DNA from: Rugalucina vietnamica
Lineage: Eukaryota > Mollusca > Bivalvia > Lucinida > Lucinidae
DNA length: 64,000 nucleotides
Assembly: GCA_964017185.1 (NCBI GenBank)
Contig: OZ024876.1
Span: 28,674,278 to 28,738,277, forward strand
Direction of reading: 5' to 3'
Each line of letters begins with the position of its first letter. Within the stretch, counting starts at the first letter, position 1. The position numbers and the translations under genes were made by a program. The notes under the pieces were generated by a model that did no database searches, was not told the origin of the DNA, and worked only from the letters and a program-made list of their open reading frames with translations. Positions 18,301-64,000 of the stretch are shown one piece after another.

Positions 18301-21300
18301 GAACAAACAAATAAACCATGATGAACATCATAATGACTCAAAGATTGAGTAAGCTGCCCGACGATGGAGATCCCTGGGCGCCGAATAACCTACCGGAGCA
18401 AAAGAAAAACACCATCTGGACCCCGGTGGGCCTACAAATGCAAATATGCATTTTATATAAATATGAGTTGTGTTTTTATTATATGCACACCGTATTAGAG
18501 GCAATACAGAACACACTATGAGATCGCAGAACGCCGACCTTTTTGATAGGCCAGTGTTGGGGGATTATCTTTTAACATTAAATAACAATGGTATGATTCA
18601 AAATGACTTCACATAGCTAATGTCGAATAAATTATGTTATGTTCTGTGCAGTAGTTGCTTCTGTATGGGCGATGGTGATAAAATGAGCCACTGCATAAGA
18701 AAACCAAGAAAATGCTTGTGCGAAAACAAAGGCGCAGATCAGCTTTGCGGTAACCGCAAAGCTGATCAGCGCCTTTATTTTCGCTACACGGATAATACAA
18801 TCCCTCTTCTACTTAAATCTAAAATTTCAAGCTTCTAGCCTGCTTCTGTGACTGTACAGGCTGGTTTGTGTCTGGCCTGGTCGGAACCTAAATTGTTGGT
18901 TTTCTCACGCACAGGCTCAAATGTAACTGTATCCACATTGGAAACAAATGCATACGTAGCTGAAACCAGGAAACATGGTTAGTGTTTTCCTTGTCTAATA
19001 TGACGTCATCTTGACGTAACATGACTGGGTACTTAATTAAAAAGGTTTGACATACGTACCTGGAATAGGCGATAATCCTTTTTCTGTTTTGATATTGTTG
19101 TTGTTATTGATGATATTTTTATCTACAGTAATATTGTTATTGTTTAAATTGTCTCTTTTACTAGGTGGACTACTTTCACAGTCACTCGACTCGTCTTTTA
19201 TTGAAGCACGTTCCACAACGTCATGATCCGCCTTACAAAATAGTCCGTCGTCCCGAAGAGCGAATTCGTCTCCTGGAATAAGCTGTCTGCTGCACGCTAC
19301 ACATCTGAAGCAGTCTATATGATATGAACTTTCCCGCGCTTTCATAACAAAGTCATTCTTGGAAAAACCTTGGTCACACTTTGAACATTTCTGACCAAAT
19401 AACCTGAAACAAATACAAACAAAAATATCATTATGAAATCTTGCCCATACAATATACAGACTTGCTGTAAATAATTTATTTGGGGAAAATATTTTTAATA
19501 GTTTATATTTGCTCAAATATGTGGGTACACATCAGAACCGCTTCGGCGAGGTGGTTCAAACGAGTGTCCAAAATCTATGTTTTCCAGATCAAAATTAAGA
19601 AAACTTGTATATCCCTGTACACCCCACTTTTACCGTATAAATTTGGGGTACAGGGGAATATTTATTTCACGGACATGTTTTCCTGATGTATTTTAGTGGC
19701 GAGGACATGTATGCATTCGTTTGGAAAGTTTTTACCAGCGCCATGAAATTAGACATTTTCTTCAGAACCAGATAATACACAAAACTAGTATGCAAATGAG
19801 TAGAGAGTTTTTTTTTTATTCACAGAAACAGTTGCATTGCAAGAGAACAAGAAAATACATGTACTGTTAATACACTCCTTCCGTATTCCACTTATGAGTC
19901 ACAAAAATCACCTGAGAATTCATTAATAAACGTATATTAAAATAAAGACCACAATTTCAACGGAATTTATGTCTAAATACGTAGTTTTTGTCACTATGAC
20001 AAAAGTTAAGCAGACTTGCAACACCAAGACATATGTTAAAAAAGTAAAATATATGTTTTGATGTCGTAAGTTTGTGCGTTACAGCACATACACAAGTTTT
20101 TGTAGGTCAGGCCTTGAAAGGGAGACTGACACCATCTGTGTCGTCGAGATGTGAACAAAATTGTGCATCCTGCATCGAGCAGTATCAGATTATGATGAAA
20201 TCGAGCTATCATTCATGGGCGACATTGGTGTGATTTGCTTGATCTTTGATGGTTTTCTTGCACTACTTGTTGGGTATTCGCATGTGTCGCAAAAAAATAT
20301 TCCGGTTCATGAAATAAGTGTAGCCGTTTCGCGCCGCGACTGTTGGCCAACACGTAATTTTGTTAGAACGTCACTATGATAATTATCACAATGACGTCAA
20401 AGTTCAGAATGTCCTGTTGATGTCAAAACGCGTGATTATGTGTGCTTCTCTTTAGTGATTATAATACAGGTCTGACGATTTTTATTGGCACTAAACAATC
20501 CATTGCATATTTACATTCAAGTTTGCCGATATCTCATTTAAGGATACATGTATACTGCGTTGATAGGCAAAACTAAATAAACAAAGAATTGTTTGCGACA
20601 GAATATCGCGAATGGTTTATAACAGTTTGCATGAAAAAGCATCAAACAGTAACTGGAATCAATGGGGATAGAGAATGCCGTTCGTCGTGATCCATGAATT
20701 GCATCCTCGACATAACCTCGCTCGTGCCTCCGCTCGTGACAGAATTTGCTACCTTCCTTGCGCTCTATGAAATCTATGCACTCTTATATTAGATAAGAAG
20801 ATTGAGGGATTCATTTTTGCTTTTACTGGCGAAATGGTACTGCTTCCACTTGCAGACAACGAACACAACGTCAGTTTAAGCTTCAATATCATTTTACAGT
20901 CTACGAAGATGATTCTTTCTTGTCAACCTTAACAATGGCAATTCTGAAATTCTGATCTGAAACGACCAAATCTACGAAACCTCTAGACGACTTCATGTTC
21001 GTGCAAAGTTAATCCGTATCATAATCAACACCTAATAATTATGTTTTGTCAGTTTTAGTGTCGGATCGTTTGATCACTTTGGCGGCGGCTTTGAAGTTAT
21101 AAAGCTAATCAAAATATTGAATGGATTTTATGATTAATCCAATTAAAGCTTACAGTTACAGAGCGATCAGATGAGCGTAAATCGTCAGGTGAAGATAGCG
21201 CTAGTTTACGCCATAACTCAATGAATTGCTGGAATCTTTGTCTGGCTTTAATAACAAGAAATAAAATTAAATCGGCTGCACATGGCTAATGAATACAGTA

Positions 21301-51545: not shown

Positions 51546-51900
51546 TAGGGTGGATTGCAGAGTTTAGCAAGATATTCATCAAATTCGTTGATTTCCTTCA
51601 TTTTTCAAAATGACACATTCGCCAGTTTTTACGCAATTGTAGGCGAACGAAAAAAAGTCTGACGGCTGATTTTCATAGGTCGTCTTTGAAAATAGTTTGA
51701 CTACATATACTCGGAATTTCGGATGAATCGACTGAAACCACAAAAAAGTTATTCAAACACCAAACAAAAATCTTCCCGGTAGCACTGGATCCTAAGAAAG
51801 GATTCGAAAAATGATTAAAATGAGCATATAGGAGGATTAAACCATTAACAGTGCAAGAATAAATCAAACTGAGCGCTTGCGGCTTTCGCCTTCTTCAGAG
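51546..51900. other. Unassigned segment between tandem array and non-LTR element
   Basis: No open frame is convincing. Read on the minus strand, its right end has GACTCTGAAGAAGGCGAAAG, a word often found near the 3' ends of retroelement coding regions, so this may be a small fragment of another retroelement. The evidence is weak. Confidence 0.3.
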
Positions 51901-51902
51901 TC

Positions 51903-54250
51903 AATGTGTATTTACAGGAATAAAGCATCTATTCCACCCATTGAGCATAATAACCAAATATACACAAATGAACACGATAAAGCAAACATCCTTAATGAAT
52001 TCTTTCAGAGTCAGTCATTTCTAGATGATCGAGAAGCCCGTCTTCCAGCAATTCTTCCAACTAAGTTAGACTCTGAATTAAACAGTATTGTCCTAACAAT
52101 GGACGAAGTTGAATCTGCTCTCAAAGTACTTCCGGTGGGCAAGGCAACTGGTCCCAATGGTCTAAGTAATCGCATTCTTCGAGAACTTTCACACGAACTT
52201 TCTATCCCATATTGCTCCCTATTTAACCAGTCTCTAAGTACAGGATATGTACCAAGATCATATAAAGAAGCCAACGTTAGTCCGGTTCCTAAAAAGGGTG
52301 ATTTATCCATCACAGACCTATTTCTTTACTAAATTCCGAGGACAAAGTAATTGAAAGACTTGTATTTAAACATTTGTATAACCATCTTCGTGACAACAAT
52401 ATTCTCTCCTCTCTACAGTCTGGTTTTATACCTGGCGATTCTACCGTGAATCAACTAACATATCTATATAATGTTTTCTGTCAAGCCCTTGACGAAGGAA
52501 AAGAAGTAAGAGCTGTTTTCTGTGACATCAGCAAAGCATTTGACAGAGTTTGGCATTCTGATCTACTTCTCAAACTTCAAGCGGCTGGTGTCACAGGAAA
52601 AGTCTTAGCATGGTTCAATAGTTATCTTTCTGAACGCAGACAGCGTGTAGTGATACCTGGTGGTACTTCTGACTGGAAATCTATTCATGCTCGTGTTCCA
52701 CAAGGATCTATTTTTGGTCCCTTGTTGTTTCTAGTATATATCAATGATATTGTCGTAGACATAGGTTCAAACATACGTCTATTCGCTGATGACACTAGCC
52801 TTTATATAATAGTTGACGATCCTGTTACAGCTGCTGGATGCCTGAACACAGACCTTCAGAGAATTACTAGATGGGCTTCTCTGTGTTTAGTCAAATTCAA
52901 CCCGACCAAGACTGAAGCGTTCTTAGCATCACGAAAATTATTTAAGAATCATCCCCCTATCTATATGCAAAACCAGCAGATAACTGAAGTAAATTCACAT
53001 AAACATCTTGGTATTATTTTTTTCAAGCGATTGCACATAGCATAATCAAATAAAATACATCACTGAAAAAGCATGGACTAGAATTAATATTATGAGAAGA
53101 CTGAAATTCAAGCTTGATAGAAAGTCATTGGAAACGATCTATTTAACTTTTATCAGACCATTACTTGAGTATGGTGATGTTCGCTGGGATAACTGTACCA
53201 AGTATGAAAAAGAAGAATTAGATAAAATACAAAACGAGGCAGCCAGAATTGCAACTGGCGCAACCAAACTTGTATCTTTGATTCCTCTTTCTAATGAAAT
53301 AAAATGGGAAAGTCTTGAGGATAGACGCAATAAACACAAACTAACGCTTTTTTATAAAATGAAATTTAACCTTTGTCCTGAGTACTTGTCTTCACTAGTT
53401 CCTCAAACTGTAAGTAGTATTTCTCGTTATAATCTTAGAAATGCAAACGACCTACAAATGATCAAAACTGAATCAACTCTTTATTATAACTCATTCCTAC
53501 CTTCCACTGTAAGAGCATGGAATAATCTGCCCAATGAAGCTAAACATTTACAATCAACTGATGCTTTCAAATACTATCTTAAAAAGGACAATGTACAAGT
53601 CCCTAAGTATTATTATACTGGCAAACGCAACGTTCAAATCTTACATACTCGATTAAGAACTAACTGCAGTTCACTAAACCTTGACATCTTTATTAAGAGT
53701 ATATCCAATTCTCCCTTGTGTGTTTGTGGTAGTTTGGAAGATACTCAGCATTATTTCTTTCATTGTCCAAACTTTACGCAACAACGAATTGAGCTTTTAA
53801 ATGAAATTTCTAGATACAGTACCACTTCGTTAACTCTCTTCTTGTATGGTGACTTGACTTTATCTTTTGAAACAAATGTTCTCATTTTCCAAGCAGTGCA
53901 TAAGTATATTCACAACACACATCGCTTTTAAGTCAAAAATGGTCTATGGTCTCCATGATTAGTGTGTCAGGAGTTCGGTTTTGTGTGTCCCGGTTTGCCT
54001 GCGCCCTGCTTCCATCTCACAGGGGAATCTTTTCATTTTTTGTAAACTTATTTTTATTCTAATGTAGATCTACCTCTACATTACGAAATTACTCATAAAT
54101 CACATTTTTGTTTTGCTGTATTTTTTCTCAATAAGTTTTTTGCTTAATTTATTCCTTAGACTTGTTTTTGTTATTTTCATTCTTCATATTGACTATGACG
54201 TAAATTATACTTGTCTTTAATTATGAATCAATTATTATTATTATTATTAA
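51903..54250 (+). mobile_element. 5'-truncated non-LTR retrotransposon (Jockey/CR1-like)
   Basis: The element contains the whole reverse transcriptase and C-terminal region of a non-LTR retrotransposon, but lacks the apurinic endonuclease and ORF1. Recognisable protein begins at about 51925. The 3' end is placed near an ATT-rich simple tail (about 54232-54250), the kind of short-repeat end seen in CR1/Jockey elements. A 3' UTR of roughly 300 bp separates it from the last stop codon. No target-site duplication is evident, probably because the 5' edge is not exactly located. Confidence 0.85.
51925..53931 (+). pseudogene. Reverse transcriptase ORF2 remnant of a non-LTR retrotransposon
   Basis: Three reading-frame segments (to 52332, 52374-53045 and 53092-53931) together carry the reverse transcriptase blocks in order. 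These are NEFFQSQ and GKATGPNGLSNRIL (fingers), SGFIPGDST, CDISKAFDRVWH (catalytic Asp of motif A), VPQGSIFGPLLFLVYINDI (motif B), the FADD box at 52782-52793 and KHLGI (motif D/E). A long thumb and connection region follows, then a C-terminal CVCGSLEDTQHYFFHC zinc-like motif. The first break, near 52310, is a short deletion that shifts frame. The second, near 53017-53045, combines a T-run length change with a TGG-to-TAG change. The copy is dead but recent enough that all motifs remain readable. Confidence 0.88.
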
Positions 54251-55960: not shown

Positions 55961-57629
55961 AGCTCACCTGAGCCGAAGGCTCATAGGTGAGCTTATAGTA
56001 TACCCATGCTCCGGCGTCCGTCCGTCCGTCGTCGTCCACAATTTCAAAGATCTTCTTCACTGAAACCGCTGGGCCGATTGTTCTCATATTACACATACAC
56101 CATCTACAGGTAAGGGGAAAGAATAATTGTGTTTTTTGTTTTGATCGGATAAGGACTCTGGTTGCTATGGCAACTTATGCTTCCCATAGACTTATAATGG
56201 AAAAAAGTGAAAATTGCCAGTTTTTGCTGTCTTGTTGGAGATATTTGAATTTTGTTTTTGCAGAAATGTTTATTGAGTAGTCCTCTACGTTTCATGTGAC
56301 TTTTTTCCTAATCCTTCATTTTGATTGGTTGCAGGGGCCCCATATAGGGCAAAATTTGGAAAAACATTCAAAAGTCTTCTTCTCAGAAACTGGGGATGAA
56401 GCCTATACTTTGTATACATGTTCCTGACAGTAGCCTCTACATAATTTGTGTTTTTTATTCCAGGCAGATAAGAACTCTGGTTGCTATGGCAACTTAAAGT
56501 TTCCATAGACTTATAATGGGAAAAGTGGAAATCGGCTATTTTTCCGCTAAATTTGCAGACATTTGAATTTTGTTTTTGCAGAAATGTTTACTGAGTAGTG
56601 TTTGACGTTTCTTGCGAGTTTTGTCCTAATCCTTTATTTTGATTGGGTGCTGGGGCCCCATAAAGGGCAAAATTTTGAAAAAAAAAAAAAAAAAAAAAAC
56701 ATTTAAAAATCTTCTCCTCAGAAACTGTCAAGTGGATGAATCCTGTACTTTGTATACATGTTCCTGACAGTAGCCTCTACATAATTTGTGTTTTTTATTC
56801 CAGTCGGATAAGAACTCTGGTTGCTATGGTAACTTTAAGTTTCCATAGACTTATAATGGGAAAAGTGGAAATTAGCTATTTTTTGAAAACTATTGCAGCC
56901 TGAGATCTGAAAAGTGGTAGATGCAAACAACTAATGGATTAGATGAAGGTATATGATTAATTTAGGTCAAGGTCATCTCTTGACCTTGGCCGGTCTGTCG
57001 TCCATACAACTTTTCAAAGATTTTTTTCTCAGAAACCACTTGGCCAATCAAAGCCAAATTTTATATGAAGCATCTATAGGAAGTGGGAACCAATGTGTAT
57101 ATAAATGATCCAGGTCACATGACCAAGATGGCCACCATGCCCATATATGGTAAAAACCCTTAAAATATCTTCTTCTCCAGAACCGGTAAACTGATTTCAA
57201 CGAAACTTTGCATGAAGTATGGATGACTCAAGTACTACAATGTATACATAAAACATGACCCTGTGGTGACCTTGACCTATTTTATGGCAAGGTCAACATA
57301 GGTTGTCAATGCATTTGAATGGGGAAAACTTTTAAAATGTCATTTTAAGTGAAAGTCTTGCAGGAAATGGGCAGTAGGACTGAAATTTAATGATTCTGAA
57401 AAACAAATGGACCCCAGGGGCTCATCTGCTTTTAAAATGTTATTTGAAGGGGAAAATCAGCAGGAAATTGGCAAATGGACAGAATATTGATTATTCTGAA
57501 AAAAAGAAAATGGCCCAAGGGTTTCGTCTGCCCCTGCACTGGGGTTAAATACCATAATATTCAAATATGTTTATTGTTATATGAAGCAAATCTCAGGTGA
57601 GCGTTTACAGGACCATTGGTCCTCTGGTT
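55961..57629 (+). mobile_element. AGCTCACCTGAGC-type non-autonomous element
   Basis: The left end AGCTCACCTGAGCCGAAGGC forms a short hairpin with GGTGAGCT and is followed by GTCCGTCCGTCCGTC and CACAATTTCAAAG. The right end CAGGTGAGCG leads to a 15-nt hairpin AGGACCATTGGTCCT and then CTGG. This sequence type is very common in bivalve genomes (my recollection, unchecked). The 3' hairpin followed by CTRR would suit a Helitron, but conserved bases outside the TC start argue against a simple match. Internal tandem units lie at about 56110-56880. No coding capacity. Confidence 0.65.
56110..56880 (+). repeat. Tandem units of 320-340 bp inside the AGCTCACC element
   Basis: The word ACTCTGGTTGCTATGG recurs at 56154, 56474 and 56814, each followed by TTCCATAGACTTATAATGG-like text. 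GTATACATGTTCCTGACAGT and TGAATTTTGTTTTTGCAGAA recur between them. The second unit is longer because of an A run at about 56678-56699. Confidence 0.8.
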
Positions 57630-58690: not shown

Positions 58691-59185
58691 TGTATTATGG
58701 AAAGATTATAATTCTGTGATAGAAGCAGGTATGTGTTTGGTATTTTAATTAATTCAATAATTAATTTATAGTGTATTCATTTATATTTACGTGTCACTCG
58801 CAGTGTCAAGGACATAGAAAGCATTCATGGACGTGGAAGAACTTATTAGTTGTTCCCCTTGGAAAAACTCACTATTTTCATACACAGTTACTTCCCTTGG
58901 AAAAACGTTTTATATACGTTTTATAAATACCTTAATATGTTTGTCAAGATAATATGTCATTCCAGGCTGAACATAAACCAGAATGCTAATTCAATAGATA
59001 TTAGCTTAAGCTCCTGACATTTTGATATATTACATCTATGTATATCATTTACTTTCTTTGTAACAGCTTATTTCATGTACACCGTTTACTTGAAATATTC
59101 TCAGCAATATAACTGCTATGGAGTTCATGCACTTTTCGCCAGTCACGATAGTCAAACCGATCAGGTGGGCTATATTCCCTTACTC

Positions 59186-59298
59186 GTTTTTGTTCTCATA
59201 GGACACCAGACGATTAAGGCAGAGTTTCCATTTTTGTTCTCACAGGACACCAAGTGGATTCTCTAAAAGCTTACTGCTTTTGTCCCCACGGGACACCC
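59186..59298 (+). repeat. Three spaced copies of a 21-bp word in the putative LTR
   Basis: TTTTGTTCTCATAGGACACC (59187), TTTTGTTCTCACAGGACACC (59232) and TTTTGTCCCCACGGGACACC (59278) are spaced about 45 bp apart. Each carries an internal GTCCCACGGGAC-like imperfect palindrome. Repeated words of this kind inside U3 often bind transcription factors. Confidence 0.6.
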
Positions 59299-59612
59299 AA
59301 GTAGTAGCTTTTTCTAAATTCTAAATTATAGAGTTTAATTACTATTCCCCGGCATCCAGTCAGGGGATTTAATCTTAGAAAGTGCATTTACTTTTTCTAA
59401 GTTCTAACATTTCTCATAACCATTTTCCTTTTGTAAATAAACATAGTAAAATTTGTCCATCTTGTATTCTCCGAAAACCATATCCAGAGATTCGAACCTG
59501 ATCTCATACAAACCTAATACTTTCCGGTATTCTGTCGCTACGACCGTCCGTCCGTCCGTCTGTCTTCGACTCAGGGAAAGTCCATAAACAAAAACACAAC
59601 GCGAAGTACACC

Positions 59613-59659
59613 GTAGACCTGGTTAGCAAAGCAGATACTGCATGCTTAGCCTGGTCTAC
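59613..59659 (+). other. Leader hairpin upstream of the gag start
   Basis: GTAGACCTGGTTAGCA pairs with TGCTTAGCCTGGTCTAC, with a few mismatches, around a 14-nt loop. A second smaller palindrome TGGTCAGCCGTGACCA follows at about 59671-59686. Position between LTR and gag suits an RNA structure used in packaging or dimerisation, but this is inference. Confidence 0.5.
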
Positions 59660-59790
59660 TATTACAGAATTGGTCAGCCGTGACCAGGATATGGTTCAAT
59701 CGGATATTACAAGCAATATCAATATTAAACTTCAAGTACTAACTTTATCAAAAAGTCATCACTGTGATATAAAGCCAATACGGTTTCAAA

Positions 59791-62700
59791 ATGTTTGCAA
59801 ATACAAATCAGTTTGACTTCAATGAAGAATATTATAGCAATGACCTAGGCAGTCTTTACCCTGCAATCACAAACTTAAGCAGTGGGAATATGGCTGGAAT
59901 GGGTAGCTATAGTTACGATCAAAGATCCATCTTTGACCCATTAACAATAAATCCCCAAGCAACATCCACACCTGCCAATGTACGCAGCCAATTAGTAAGT
60001 TGGGGTCCAATCACACACCTTTCACAAGGATCAGAAATGAGTTTCCAGACTTGCAGTAGCGGTTCATTTTCAGATCGTGAATTAGATCATAGCCTTTTCT
60101 CTGCTCAACCTCGCACAGAAAGCTATAGTACACAAGCTCAGTCTAATCATGGAAAAAATCCTAATTTACAAGTACCTGATACATACCAGTCTGCTCAGCA
60201 AATGAATACCCCTCAAGATCACATGCTGTTGCATTCACATCAGGATAGAACATTAGCTCCCACAAATTTAACACAAAGCAAAATAACAACTGATAGTGGC
60301 ATATGCATGTCTAATTCACAGCAAGAACAAATCAATGCTGACAGACTACAGGCACACTCATCAGCTAAAAATGTAACGAATGGACAGAATGATGGTATTT
60401 CTGTGGTAGAAGCTCAATTACAACAACAACTGAAGGAAATTCAAACTACTCTTCAGCATATTTCCCTTGTAAAACAAAAGCAGCAACAAAGCACTTCCCC
60501 AAATCAATCACATAGCTCTACACGCCAAACACGGGTTCAAATGTGCGAACAACAGCCTACCTCCCGCCTTCCAATGCCGGCAAAACAGACCCCTGTAGAG
60601 TGTTCGAGTACGCCAATATCTGAGGAAAGACAATATCATGATCCGACAATACGGCGCCCAGTTGGTTTACCCAGTCAATCACAGATGACGCTAGCAAATG
60701 CTACGGGATTCAATATAAATCAGCCACAATATACACAGCCTGGTGTTATGCCCCTTGGTACCACAAGTACACATGTACAGTCATCATCACCGGAAACTAT
60801 GCGGCAGTCACTTGTTGATCCATATCCACAACTCCAGACAATTCCCGCTCAGCAGTTGCAGCCTAGCCACGTTATTCACCAGCAAATGCAAGCGCCCTAC
60901 AACATAGCAGGTGTTCCTACATCAGTGTTAGCGCCTTACAACATGGCAGAAGTTCAGACATCAGCATTAGCGCCTCACAATATGATCACTGTACCAGCAA
61001 CTGTAGGCCAGCCTTTCGCTACAATGAATATCAATGGTAATCAGGTGAAACAAATGCCAAACTCGGAAAAGCCATACGTTATGCCAACAAACAACACTAT
61101 GTTTGCTGCCTCCAGCCAGGACAACGCTTCACAGAGAAGAATGCCCTACAAGAAGGAGATTCACCCTGACAACTTCGATGGATCTAACAAAACAGAGTGG
61201 TCTGATTACATCATACACTTTGAACAAGTTGCCAGCTGGAATGAATGGACAGATGCTCAGAAGGCGAAAATGTTAAGCATTCACCTGCGAGGAGAGGCAC
61301 AGAAACTGCTCACTGACTTAACAATGGCTCAACTTTCCAACTATGATACCATGAAGCAAATAATTACTGATAGGTATGCACCGAAGGAAAAAGATGTCGC
61401 CTACAGATGTCAGTTAAGATACAGAAAACGGGAAAAGGGAGAGAGCGTCTCTGACTATGGTCATCACTTGAGTAGACTTGCAAGGAAAGCGTACCCTAAT
61501 TTGACACTGAGTCAGCTAGAGATGTATGTCATTGATCAATTTATTACAGGCCTTGGGAATTATGAACTGCAAAAGCACGTACAATTCGGCCATCCAAAAT
61601 CGATGAATGCTGCTATCGGACTAGCAACAGAGTATGAGGCACTGGACGGGTCAGTTGACAGGGTGAGAAAGCCACATGTGTCCTCAGAGCAAATTGCACC
61701 GATAGTATCGAATGAAAATGATGTCCATCAAAGCATCACTCTCGACCAAATTGACAAACTGCTGGACAAGAAATTGAATACTTTGGCTCGCGAAGGGACC
61801 TATAGGAACAAATCACCAAACCCTGAACCAACTCATACTAGCAAAATGGCAACTGAACACAAAGAAAGTTCCACAAGTGAGCCTAAATCAGAAGAAACAA
61901 AGCAGGCTAAATTTTGTAATTACTGCAAGCGAAGGAATCATACTATCGAAGAATGTAGAACACGTCAATACAAGGAACGTAGAGTAGCTGAAAAACAAAC
62001 AGCACAACCAAAGAGTAATACGGCCTATGTCATCACACCTCAAGATTCACATATAACTACACCAGACATTGTCATCACTCCTGTTCATGATCCAGAGCCA
62101 CAACAAGCTCCTGGTACAGAAACAACAGAGAACCCGATTAAACAAGATAACACTGTCAATGAAAGTATACACGAACATCTCTTAAATCCAGTTGTCACCA
62201 GCCAAATTTATGATGATAACAATGAGATGAAGGTTGATATAGCGGCGACGTCTTGTTTGTACATAGATTCAGAGATGTTTGACACAAATGTGAAACTCTT
62301 GGTTGACACAGGGTCACCTTACTCTATCTTATCACAGAAACACTTTGAGAAACTACAACAAGAACACGATATTAAACTGTACAGTCATCCTATTAAACTT
62401 ACAGCTGCAGATGGAAGCAAGTTAGACATCAGTGGAAAAGTGACCATTAACTTTCGTACAATGGGTATCACCTATGAACAGGATTTTATCGTAGCGAGAA
62501 TTCAAGGTATAGTCGGTGTCTTAGGCATGGATTTCCTGACAAAATACGATGGTAGTATAAAGGTGCGTAAACAGACCCTCAAAACATCTAAAGGAAAATT
62601 AAAGTTGAATAAACAACCATCCACCATTGAAACATTCAATTATCAAATACAATACAGACCAGGCAGACAACACCAAAATGCTGACACCCTTTCACGAAAG

Positions 62701-64000
62701 CCGAACCGGAAATGCCCGAACACTTCATGTCCGGATTGCTATCCCTCAAGTGTAAATGTAGGTCAAGATGATAATGGAGAAGCCGATAGCTTGATGTTGG
62801 TCACTGCGACCAACAAGATCGAGGAATGTCCTTCCTACCAGTCACCTGCTACTTCTCCTAGTCTCGCGCCGGGGCCAGCTGTGCTGCAGCAAACTGATAG
62901 GGAGACAGCGAAGGTCGCTGACTCGACTCGAGGTAGATCACCTACCTATTGGTCACCTATCGGCCCACTCGTTCCTGAAACGAGAACGGAATTGTCGGAT
63001 AGAAGGGATAGCACCGCGAACTGGCTACCAACGTGGAGCCCATCTGAGTTGAGCAAAATGCAGTTAGATGATTCTTCCTTAAGCGTTATTCTCGAACGCA
63101 GGTTATGTAATGAGAAGCCAACGTTAGCTGAAATAGATCAAACTAACTACATAGCTAAGGCATTATGGTACCAGTGGAATGAACTTAAGGTGGTAGACGG
63201 AGTTCTTTATCGCAAGTGGTTAGACAAAAGAGGGAATTGTATTTATCAGGTGGTCGCACCAGAAACAATAAGGGACCTTATATTCGCAAACCTTCATTCA
63301 GCGCGAACAGCAGGTCATTTCGGTAGAGATCGCACCATCGAAAGTATTCAGCGTCGATTTTACTGGCCGGGTTATAGAAAAGACATAAACCGGTGGGTAA
63401 AGGAGTGTGACACTTGCGCACGGATAAAGCCTGGCCCAGGAAGAGGAAAGTCCGAACTTCGTCAGTTTCGCGTAAATGAAATTATGCGTTGCGTGGCCAT
63501 AGATATTTTTGGGCCTTTGCCTCTAACAGAGGACGGAAATGAGTATATAATCGTGCTCGGTGATTACTATTCGAAATGGGTAGATGCATGGGCAGTGCCC
63601 GACCACACTGCTCAGACTGTTGCGGACAAAGTGGTCGTAGAATTCTGTACAAAATTCGGTTGTCCGGGCCAAATTCATACCGATCAAGGCAGAGAATTTC
63701 AGTCTCAGTTGTTTAAACTGCTTTGTCAGAAGTTAGGGATACAACAAACGCGGACTGCGCCCTATCGGCCGAATTCGGACGGGTTAGTAGAGAGGTTTAA
63801 CCGTACACTCAAACAAATGCTTAGAGTCTTTTGTTCAGAGAATCCGAAAGATTGGGATGATCACCTGCCTTACTTACTCATGGCATACAGAGCATCAGAA
63901 CATAAAAGCACTGGTTGTACACCAAACTTACTGTTTCTCCAACGAGAAATTTCATGCCCTCTTGATCTTATGGTAGGACCACCACCAAATACGTTAGAGG
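59791..64000 (+). CDS. Gag-protease-integrase polyprotein with reverse transcriptase and RNase H deleted
   Basis: One frame stays open for 1403 codons to the window edge. Residues 1-450 are a Gln/Ser/Thr-rich extension containing three 12-13-residue repeats with APYNM-like starts (about 370-407). Residues 451-620 resemble a retrotransposon gag capsid domain. A CX2CX4HX4C knuckle lies at 709-722. The aspartic protease has LVDTGSPYS (active D839) and GVLGMDFL. At about residue 940-950 the text jumps to the end of an RNase H domain (YQIQYRPGRQHQNADTLSR), skipping reverse transcriptase. Integrase follows with an HHCC finger (H1169, H1176, C1206, C1209) and the catalytic D1238, D1298, E1334, the last two separated by 35 residues as in active enzymes. 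No stop or frameshift occurs. The frame could serve as a source of gag and integrase for other copies, or could be a recent deletion. Confidence 0.9.
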   Translation, partial: MFANTNQFDFNEEYYSNDLGSLYPAITNLSSGNMAGMGSYSYDQRSIFDPLTINPQATSTPANVRSQLVSWGPITHLSQGSEMSFQTCSSGSFSDRELDHSLFSAQPRTESYSTQAQSNHGKNPNLQVPDTYQSAQQMNTPQDHMLLHSHQDRTLAPTNLTQSKITTDSGICMSNSQQEQINADRLQAHSSAKNVTNGQNDGISVVEAQLQQQLKEIQTTLQHISLVKQKQQQSTSPNQSHSSTRQTRVQMCEQQPTSRLPMPAKQTPVECSSTPISEERQYHDPTIRRPVGLPSQSQMTLANATGFNINQPQYTQPGVMPLGTTSTHVQSSSPETMRQSLVDPYPQLQTIPAQQLQPSHVIHQQMQAPYNIAGVPTSVLAPYNMAEVQTSALAPHNMITVPATVGQPFATMNINGNQVKQMPNSEKPYVMPTNNTMFAASSQDNASQRRMPYKKEIHPDNFDGSNKTEWSDYIIHFEQVASWNEWTDAQKAKMLSIHLRGEAQKLLTDLTMAQLSNYDTMKQIITDRYAPKEKDVAYRCQLRYRKREKGESVSDYGHHLSRLARKAYPNLTLSQLEMYVIDQFITGLGNYELQKHVQFGHPKSMNAAIGLATEYEALDGSVDRVRKPHVSSEQIAPIVSNENDVHQSITLDQIDKLLDKKLNTLAREGTYRNKSPNPEPTHTSKMATEHKESSTSEPKSEETKQAKFCNYCKRRNHTIEECRTRQYKERRVAEKQTAQPKSNTAYVITPQDSHITTPDIVITPVHDPEPQQAPGTETTENPIKQDNTVNESIHEHLLNPVVTSQIYDDNNEMKVDIAATSCLYIDSEMFDTNVKLLVDTGSPYSILSQKHFEKLQQEHDIKLYSHPIKLTAADGSKLDISGKVTINFRTMGITYEQDFIVARIQGIVGVLGMDFLTKYDGSIKVRKQTLKTSKGKLKLNKQPSTIETFNYQIQYRPGRQHQNADTLSRKPNRKCPNTSCPDCYPSSVNVGQDDNGEADSLMLVTATNKIEECPSYQSPATSPSLAPGPAVLQQTDRETAKVADSTRGRSPTYWSPIGPLVPETRTELSDRRDSTANWLPTWSPSELSKMQLDDSSLSVILERRLCNEKPTLAEIDQTNYIAKALWYQWNELKVVDGVLYRKWLDKRGNCIYQVVAPETIRDLIFANLHSARTAGHFGRDRTIESIQRRFYWPGYRKDINRWVKECDTCARIKPGPGRGKSELRQFRVNEIMRCVAIDIFGPLPLTEDGNEYIIVLGDYYSKWVDAWAVPDHTAQTVADKVVVEFCTKFGCPGQIHTDQGREFQSQLFKLLCQKLGIQQTRTAPYRPNSDGLVERFNRTLKQMLRVFCSENPKDWDDHLPYLLMAYRASEHKSTGCTPNLLFLQREISCPLDLMVGPPPNTLE

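What the first reader, a model, noticed from the sequence alone, without database searches (positions are those of the whole stretch)
59791..64000. Gypsy-type polyprotein with an in-frame loss of reverse transcriptase but otherwise intact
Gag, zinc knuckle, protease and a complete HHCC/DDE integrase lie in one uninterrupted frame. Protease (ends about residue 935) is joined directly to the last ~20 residues of RNase H near nt 62610-62640. A random deletion should preserve frame only one time in three, and no stop has accumulated over 1400 codons. This could be a recent deletion, or a non-autonomous lineage that keeps gag and integrase and borrows reverse transcriptase in trans. A host-selected gag-integrase gene is a third option.
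Basis: partly seen in the sequence, partly recalled or inferred. Interest (0 to 1): 0.75.

Follow-up and report, generated by a model that had tools for sequence, protein, structure and literature searches.

The report
Jumping gene family lacking reverse transcriptase
A small family of young retrotransposons in one eukaryotic genome has cleanly lost its reverse transcriptase, kept most of its other proteins readable, and still reached several chromosomes, most likely by borrowing that enzyme from another element.

Summary
Confirmed and extended. The window holds the 5' part of an 8.3-kb LTR retrotransposon: a 952-bp LTR and one 1,662-aa frame with gag, CCHC knuckle, protease and integrase but no reverse transcriptase (RT) or RNase H. 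Four more full-length copies on four other contigs share the junction (one with three extra bases). All five have LTR pairs 99.6-100% identical and a 4-bp target duplication, so the deleted form itself was copied and inserted repeatedly and recently. No RT-bearing element of similar identity turned up in junction, LTR, integrase or RT searches (the last two lists capped). The closest RT-bearing family (two copies, open 2,303-aa frame) is 67-72% identical in DNA; relative to it 557-558 codons are missing in frame. Pooled capsid, nucleocapsid, protease and integrase pieces show fewer amino-acid changes than neutral (omega 0.33-0.49); N-terminal gag does not. Best reading: a semi-autonomous, RT-less Gypsy-derived lineage mobilised in trans. 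The principle is known (IAP 1Δ1, wheat Sabrina_SA, Quinta); losing only RT-RNase H while keeping integrase is the variant. Helper identity and use of its own proteins are inferred.

The parts
58711..58714 (.). 5' copy of the 4-bp target site duplication (ATTC); the same four bases follow the 3' LTR outside the window
58715..59666 (+). 5' LTR, TG...CA ends; its partner lies outside the window (equivalent to 66088-67040); no substitution and one 1-base gap between them
59667..59790 (+). leader with putative primer binding site just after the LTR, similar to that of the RT-bearing relatives
   Evidence: primer role inferred, tRNA not identified
59791..64000 (+). gag-protease-integrase frame, continues to the equivalent of 64761 (outside the window)
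59791..61149 (+). N-terminal gag piece, fast evolving (8 synonymous, 43 nonsynonymous changes among 5 copies)
61150..61662 (+). capsid-like piece of gag, 78% identical to the RT-bearing relative on C17
   Evidence: the capsid label is inferred from position, no Pfam gag model matched
61915..61956 (+). CCHC zinc knuckle, present in 5 of 5 copies
   Evidence: motif pattern
62203..62622 (+). aspartic protease piece; DTGS present in 4 of 5 copies, its Asp replaced in C4
62624..62625 (+). deletion junction: the stretch after protease is joined to the last residues of RNase H; 558 codons missing here compared with the C17 relative (557 in C4)
63259..63792 (+). integrase HHCC and DDE core; the combined motif matched in 4 of 5 copies; C15 has its first His replaced (its DDE was not checked apart)

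Best explanation
A semi-autonomous LTR retrotransposon lineage derived from Ty3/Gypsy. One in-frame deletion removed reverse transcriptase and RNase H. The element's RNA is made from its own LTR and translated into Gag-protease-integrase (plus, downstream, a small zinc-finger-like protein). Particles co-assemble with Gag-Pol of an RT-bearing relative, most likely the family with copies on C17 and C7, whose RT copies the RT-less RNA; integrase of either source inserts it. Shown: the deletion, five LTR-flanked insertions with target duplications, recent activity, fewer amino-acid changes than neutral in the pooled core domains, no RT-bearing twin found in this assembly. Inferred: expression, co-packaging, the helper's identity and use of the element's own integrase.
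For: Five copies with one junction on five contigs. LTR pairs 99.6-100% identical against 97.8-99.4% between copies over long pieces. 4-bp target duplications in 5 of 5. Pooled CA+NC+PR+IN: 34 of 62 changes nonsynonymous against 71-79% expected, omega 0.33-0.49, p 2e-5 to 5e-3 for kappa 1-6; contrast with N-terminal gag, Fisher p 0.001. LTR search: no RT-bearing element seen with these LTRs. RT search: only C17 and C7 close, the other 113 listed at most 60% identical to them. C17/C7: LTR pairs 100% and 99.9%, open 2,303-aa frames, same first 10 LTR bases, similar primer site.
Against: Five full copies only; the selection estimate rests on 134 changes, and the grouping of core domains (linker and integrase tail left out) was chosen. 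Gag as a whole gives omega 0.87, p 0.35; capsid alone is not significant, and with kappa 2 or more only integrase is significant alone. Two copies carry a changed motif residue and two are split by insertions. The primer site differs from the helper candidate's by a few bases, and similar LTR 3' ends occur in other families, so the helper is not pinned. Pairwise distances vary along the element, which suggests recombination and weakens the assumption that all changes arose after the deletion. C4 has 4 LTR differences, so part of its changes may postdate insertion.
Confidence: 0.68

Rival explanations
1. An RT-bearing twin family exists or existed but is absent from this assembly. The RT-less form was its deletion offspring and recombined with it; the constraint seen is the twin's.
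For: Uneven distances along the element, and no differences among C8, C11 and C4 over 62667-63266 just downstream of the junction, as if the junction region had spread into different backbones. Two solo LTRs (C9, C10) could come from RT-bearing copies. Two diverged LTR relatives (C11:6952315, C8:7793128) were not examined beyond about 1.5 kb.
Against: No RT-bearing copy or half-junction of high identity among junction, LTR, integrase or RT hits; 5 of 5 full-length copies are RT-less.
Confidence: 0.2
2. A passive passenger: only LTR, primer site and packaging signals matter, and the frame is open because the copies are young.
For: LTR pairs nearly identical, so little time since insertion; N-terminal gag changes freely; only one of five copies has both the whole frame open and unsplit, and two have changed motif residues.
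Against: Between-copy divergence exceeds LTR-pair divergence, so for most copies most changes predate insertion, and in the pooled core domains they lean to silent ones.
Confidence: 0.1
3. A host gene made from gag and integrase.
For: Long open frame without RT.
Against: Several dispersed LTR-flanked copies with target duplications; broken copies coexist.
Confidence: 0.01
4. Assembly artefact: RT collapsed between the two sides.
For: None found.
Against: Same junction at five places with different flanks.
Confidence: 0.01

Closest known systems
Mouse IAP 1Δ1 subtype
   Same: A propagating deletion derivative with a gag-pol fusion frame that needs Gag and Pol in trans; the fusion protein is reported to help in cis (PMC7411935 and PMC6466679, passages read)
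   Different: An endogenous retrovirus; its 1.9-kb deletion removes part of gag and pol; full-length IAPs of the same family coexist. Here the missing stretch is RT-RNase H, gag-protease and integrase remain, and no close RT-bearing parent was found
Wheat RLG_Sabrina_SA with RLG_Wilma
   Same: Semi-autonomous Gypsy element with a gag-protease frame and an RT-bearing partner of low sequence similarity (PMC9744471, passages read)
   Different: Lacks integrase as well as RT; thousands of copies
Wheat RLG_Quinta with RLG_Cereba
   Same: Gypsy pair whose non-autonomous member keeps gag (PMC11302176, passages read)
   Different: [quoted passage not shown] both are centromeric
RT-bearing family on C17 and C7 of this genome
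   Same: Same order gag-PR-[RT-RH]-IN plus a downstream zinc-finger-like frame, same first 10 LTR bases, integrase 72% identical
   Different: Has RT-RNase H; 67-72% DNA identity over the pieces that align; LTRs mostly unlike

Membership tests
Ty3/Gypsy LTR retrotransposon (complete) | LTRs with TG...CA ends and short target duplication | tested here: met
Ty3/Gypsy LTR retrotransposon (complete) | Domains gag-PR-RT-RH-IN | tested here: not met
   RT-RH absent; so filed as a non-autonomous derivative, not as a complete member; the RT-bearing relative has them
Ty3/Gypsy LTR retrotransposon (complete) | Integrase related to Gypsy and retroviral integrases | tested here: met
   spumavirus and Ty3 entries among the best matches; relative with RT 72%
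Non-autonomous LTR element mobilised in trans | Full-length copies lack an essential enzyme | tested here: met
   5 of 5
Non-autonomous LTR element mobilised in trans | Multiple insertions of the deleted form | tested here: met
Non-autonomous LTR element mobilised in trans | Primer site, LTR termini and activity period shared with a helper | tested here: inconclusive
   first 10 LTR bases identical, primer site similar but not identical, both recently active; other families have similar LTR 3' ends
Semi-autonomous element contributing its own proteins | Coding frame under constraint | tested here: inconclusive
   met for the pooled core domains, not for N-terminal gag or gag as a whole; few changes, grouping chosen afterwards
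Semi-autonomous element contributing its own proteins | Proteins made and packaged | not testable with these tools
   no RNA or protein data
Domesticated host gene | Single, immobile copy | tested here: not met
Troyka lineage | CG...CG termini and 3-bp target duplication (PMC12440569, passages) | tested here: not met
   TG...CA and 4 bp

The most novel reading that the evidence does not exclude
A stable division of labour in which a Gypsy-derived lineage has discarded only RT-RNase H, keeps gag, protease, integrase and an accessory zinc-finger-like protein under selection, and lives on the RT of a distantly related family (67-72% DNA identity), outnumbering it here (5 against 2 full-length copies found).
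Probability: 0.35. Interest if true: 0.65.

Novelty: new variant of a known kind. Interest (0 to 1): 0.55.

Why it matters
The non-autonomous LTR elements described in the passages I read keep gag, gag-protease, a gag-pol fusion or no coding capacity. A lineage that loses only RT-RNase H shows which part of the polyprotein another family can supply, and makes a natural test of whether Gag and integrase must come from the element itself while RT need not.

Tried and rejected
Single recent deletion: rejected by five copies. Host gene and assembly collapse: disfavoured as above. Other RT-less relatives: of the 15 integrase hits ranked 8-22 (49-61% identity), RT was seen upstream in 10: 6 by coordinates, C2:979159, and C16:12200342, C4:24871494 and (in pieces) C14:47215334. 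So the clean RT-less form was seen only in this family among those tested; lower-ranked hits were not looked at one by one. dN/dS against the RT-bearing family was uninformative (silent sites saturated). The tRNA primer was not identified. Splicing as origin of the deletion: the RNase H side in the C17 relative is preceded by AG, but no GT stands at the other side there; left open. No separate genome search with gag was made. Literature: (word searches of open-access papers, lists capped at 10-25 rows except) listed nothing that I recognised, from titles and abstract starts, as an LTR lineage losing only RT and keeping integrase; that does not show that none is in print. RNA families and tRNAs in the window: none.

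Full report
The window's last 4.2 kb hold one open frame from 59791. Pfam finds an aspartic protease (about residues 830-932; RVP_2 just above its cut-off, other protease models below), Integrase_H2C2 (1157-1214) and rve (1236-1327), no reverse transcriptase or RNase H, and no gag model. The genome is held (1.09 Gb, 47 contigs; window = C8:28674278-28738277). The frame ends at window-equivalent 64761 after an integrase C-terminal domain match; a second frame of 218 aa and a 3' LTR follow. The 5' LTR is 58715-59666.

Copies. The 201 bases across the junction matched C8 (window), C11 and C15 (100%), C4 (98%) over their whole length, and C14 over the first 167, with the rest about 4 kb away behind an insertion. 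All five lie between LTR pairs: 99.9% in C8 (a gap only), 100% over 943 bases in C11, 99.9% in C15, 99.6% over 894 in C4 (its 3' LTR is interrupted), 99.8% in C14. Aligned pieces of the copies are 97.8-99.4% identical to C8; their LTRs are 98.7-99.7% identical to that of C8, so the margin over the within-copy figure is small for C15. The target duplications are ATTC (C8), CTAT (C11), CTAT (C15), GTTG (C4), ATAG (C14), in different flanks. So the deleted form itself was transcribed, reverse transcribed and integrated at these five places (inferred from this anatomy), recently.

The family. An LTR search gave 39 matches, all 36 candidates scored. Besides the ten LTRs there are two solo LTRs with target duplications (C9 TAAA, C10 CATG), one 3' LTR with 37 internal bases (C15:35482529), one 5'-truncated copy (C11:33362524), fragments on C9 and C3, two diverged relatives (74% and 78%) and partial matches to the LTR's 3' part. 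I saw no RT-bearing element with these LTRs; flanks of the fragments and diverged relatives were seen for about 1.5 kb only. The integrase search (115 of 3,223 candidates scored) gave the five copies at 98-100%, C17 and C7 at 72%, one 87% fragment with a stop, and the rest at 61% or less; in 2.5 kb fetched around that fragment only part of integrase matched. The RT search with the C17 protein (115 of 3,680 scored) gave C17 and C7, then nothing above 60%.

The RT-bearing relatives. C17 and C7 have LTR pairs of 100% and 99.9% and an open 2,303-aa frame; in C17 the part examined holds RVT_1 and RNase H matches. DNA identity to the RT-less copy is 67-72% over the larger internal pieces that align. 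Codons 1074-1630 of the C17 frame, 557 codons, are absent in frame from C4. The other four copies lack three more bases at the junction; C4's extra bases match the RNase H side of C17. This fits one deletion and a later small in-frame change. Protein identity to C17: capsid piece 78%, nucleocapsid piece 41%, protease 56%, linker plus integrase 68%, integrase tail 49%, N-terminal gag 31% over 287 aligned residues. Silent sites are saturated.

Selection. Among the copies there are 42 synonymous and 92 nonsynonymous changes (5 rows per piece; 4 for capsid, where C15 is split, and for the linker, where C14 is split). Synonymous/nonsynonymous: N-terminal gag 8/43, capsid 3/5, nucleocapsid 6/7, protease 6/7, linker 0/4, integrase 13/15, integrase tail 6/11. 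All together omega is 0.60, p 0.005; gag as a whole 0.87, p 0.35; protease to tail 0.41, p 8e-4 (no transition correction). Then I pooled capsid, nucleocapsid, protease and integrase, a grouping made after seeing these numbers: 34 of 62 nonsynonymous against 71-79% expected; omega 0.33, 0.39, 0.46, 0.49 for kappa 1, 2, 4, 6; p 2e-5 to 5e-3. LTR changes are 14 transitions to 11 transversions. Singly, integrase is significant at each kappa (p 0.004-0.036), nucleocapsid and protease only at kappa 1, capsid and tail at none. N-terminal gag is neutral or faster and differs from the pooled core (Fisher p 0.001). Because LTR pairs are more alike than the copies, most changes probably arose before insertion, less surely for C4. 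Against constraint: C4 has lost the catalytic Asp of the protease and has an early stop, C15 has lost the first His of the integrase zinc site, C11 has a 14-base loss near the C-terminus. Changes are largely private to single copies, and distances are uneven along the element, so recombination with an unseen relative cannot be excluded.

The second frame encodes 190 residues from its first Met in the window copy and is 38% identical to that of C17. It looks like two C2H2 fingers; Pfam zinc-finger matches were below cut-off and only in the C17 protein, and the PDB search gave weak matches to EGR1-type fingers (best E 0.002). Among 4 rows (C4 left out) there are 4 synonymous and 4 nonsynonymous changes.

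Mechanism. LTR transcription, translation of Gag-PR-IN, co-assembly with Gag-Pol of an RT-bearing relative, reverse transcription in trans, integration. The C17/C7 family is the best helper candidate by relatedness, shared LTR start, similar primer site and recent activity, but similar LTR 3' ends occur in other families. That this family is the helper: about 0.55 by my judgement.

Compared with the known. IAP 1Δ1, Sabrina_SA and Quinta establish the kind (passages of PMC7411935, PMC6466679, PMC9744471, PMC11302176). What differs is the extent of loss, RT-RNase H alone, and the distance from any RT-bearing relative found. It works like a trans-mobilised semi-autonomous element; as a complete Ty3/Gypsy element it fails, having no RT.

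Noticed in passing
51877-53931: Three adjacent frames that read like a non-LTR retrotransposon reverse transcriptase, apparently broken (frames; label recalled, not tested).
   Followed up: no
19037-19516 (-): Frame with a LIM-domain-like stretch, recalled as resembling an Islet-type gene exon (frame; label not tested).
   Followed up: no
56075-56883: Direct repeats of 150-171 bases at about 320-340 base spacing upstream of the element.
   Followed up: no
L010:1312-1965 and L020:3534-4232: A zinc-finger-like accessory frame downstream of integrase is kept in both the RT-less and the RT-bearing family.
   Followed up: partly
59791-61149: N-terminal gag changes mostly at amino-acid level among copies (43 of 51), neutral or faster.
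   Followed up: partly
62667-63266: No differences among C8, C11 and C4 over 600 bases just after the junction, unlike most neighbouring windows.
   Followed up: partly
L017/L018 (C14 copy): About 4 kb inserted just after the junction, with inverted ends about 90% alike over 492 bases.
   Followed up: no
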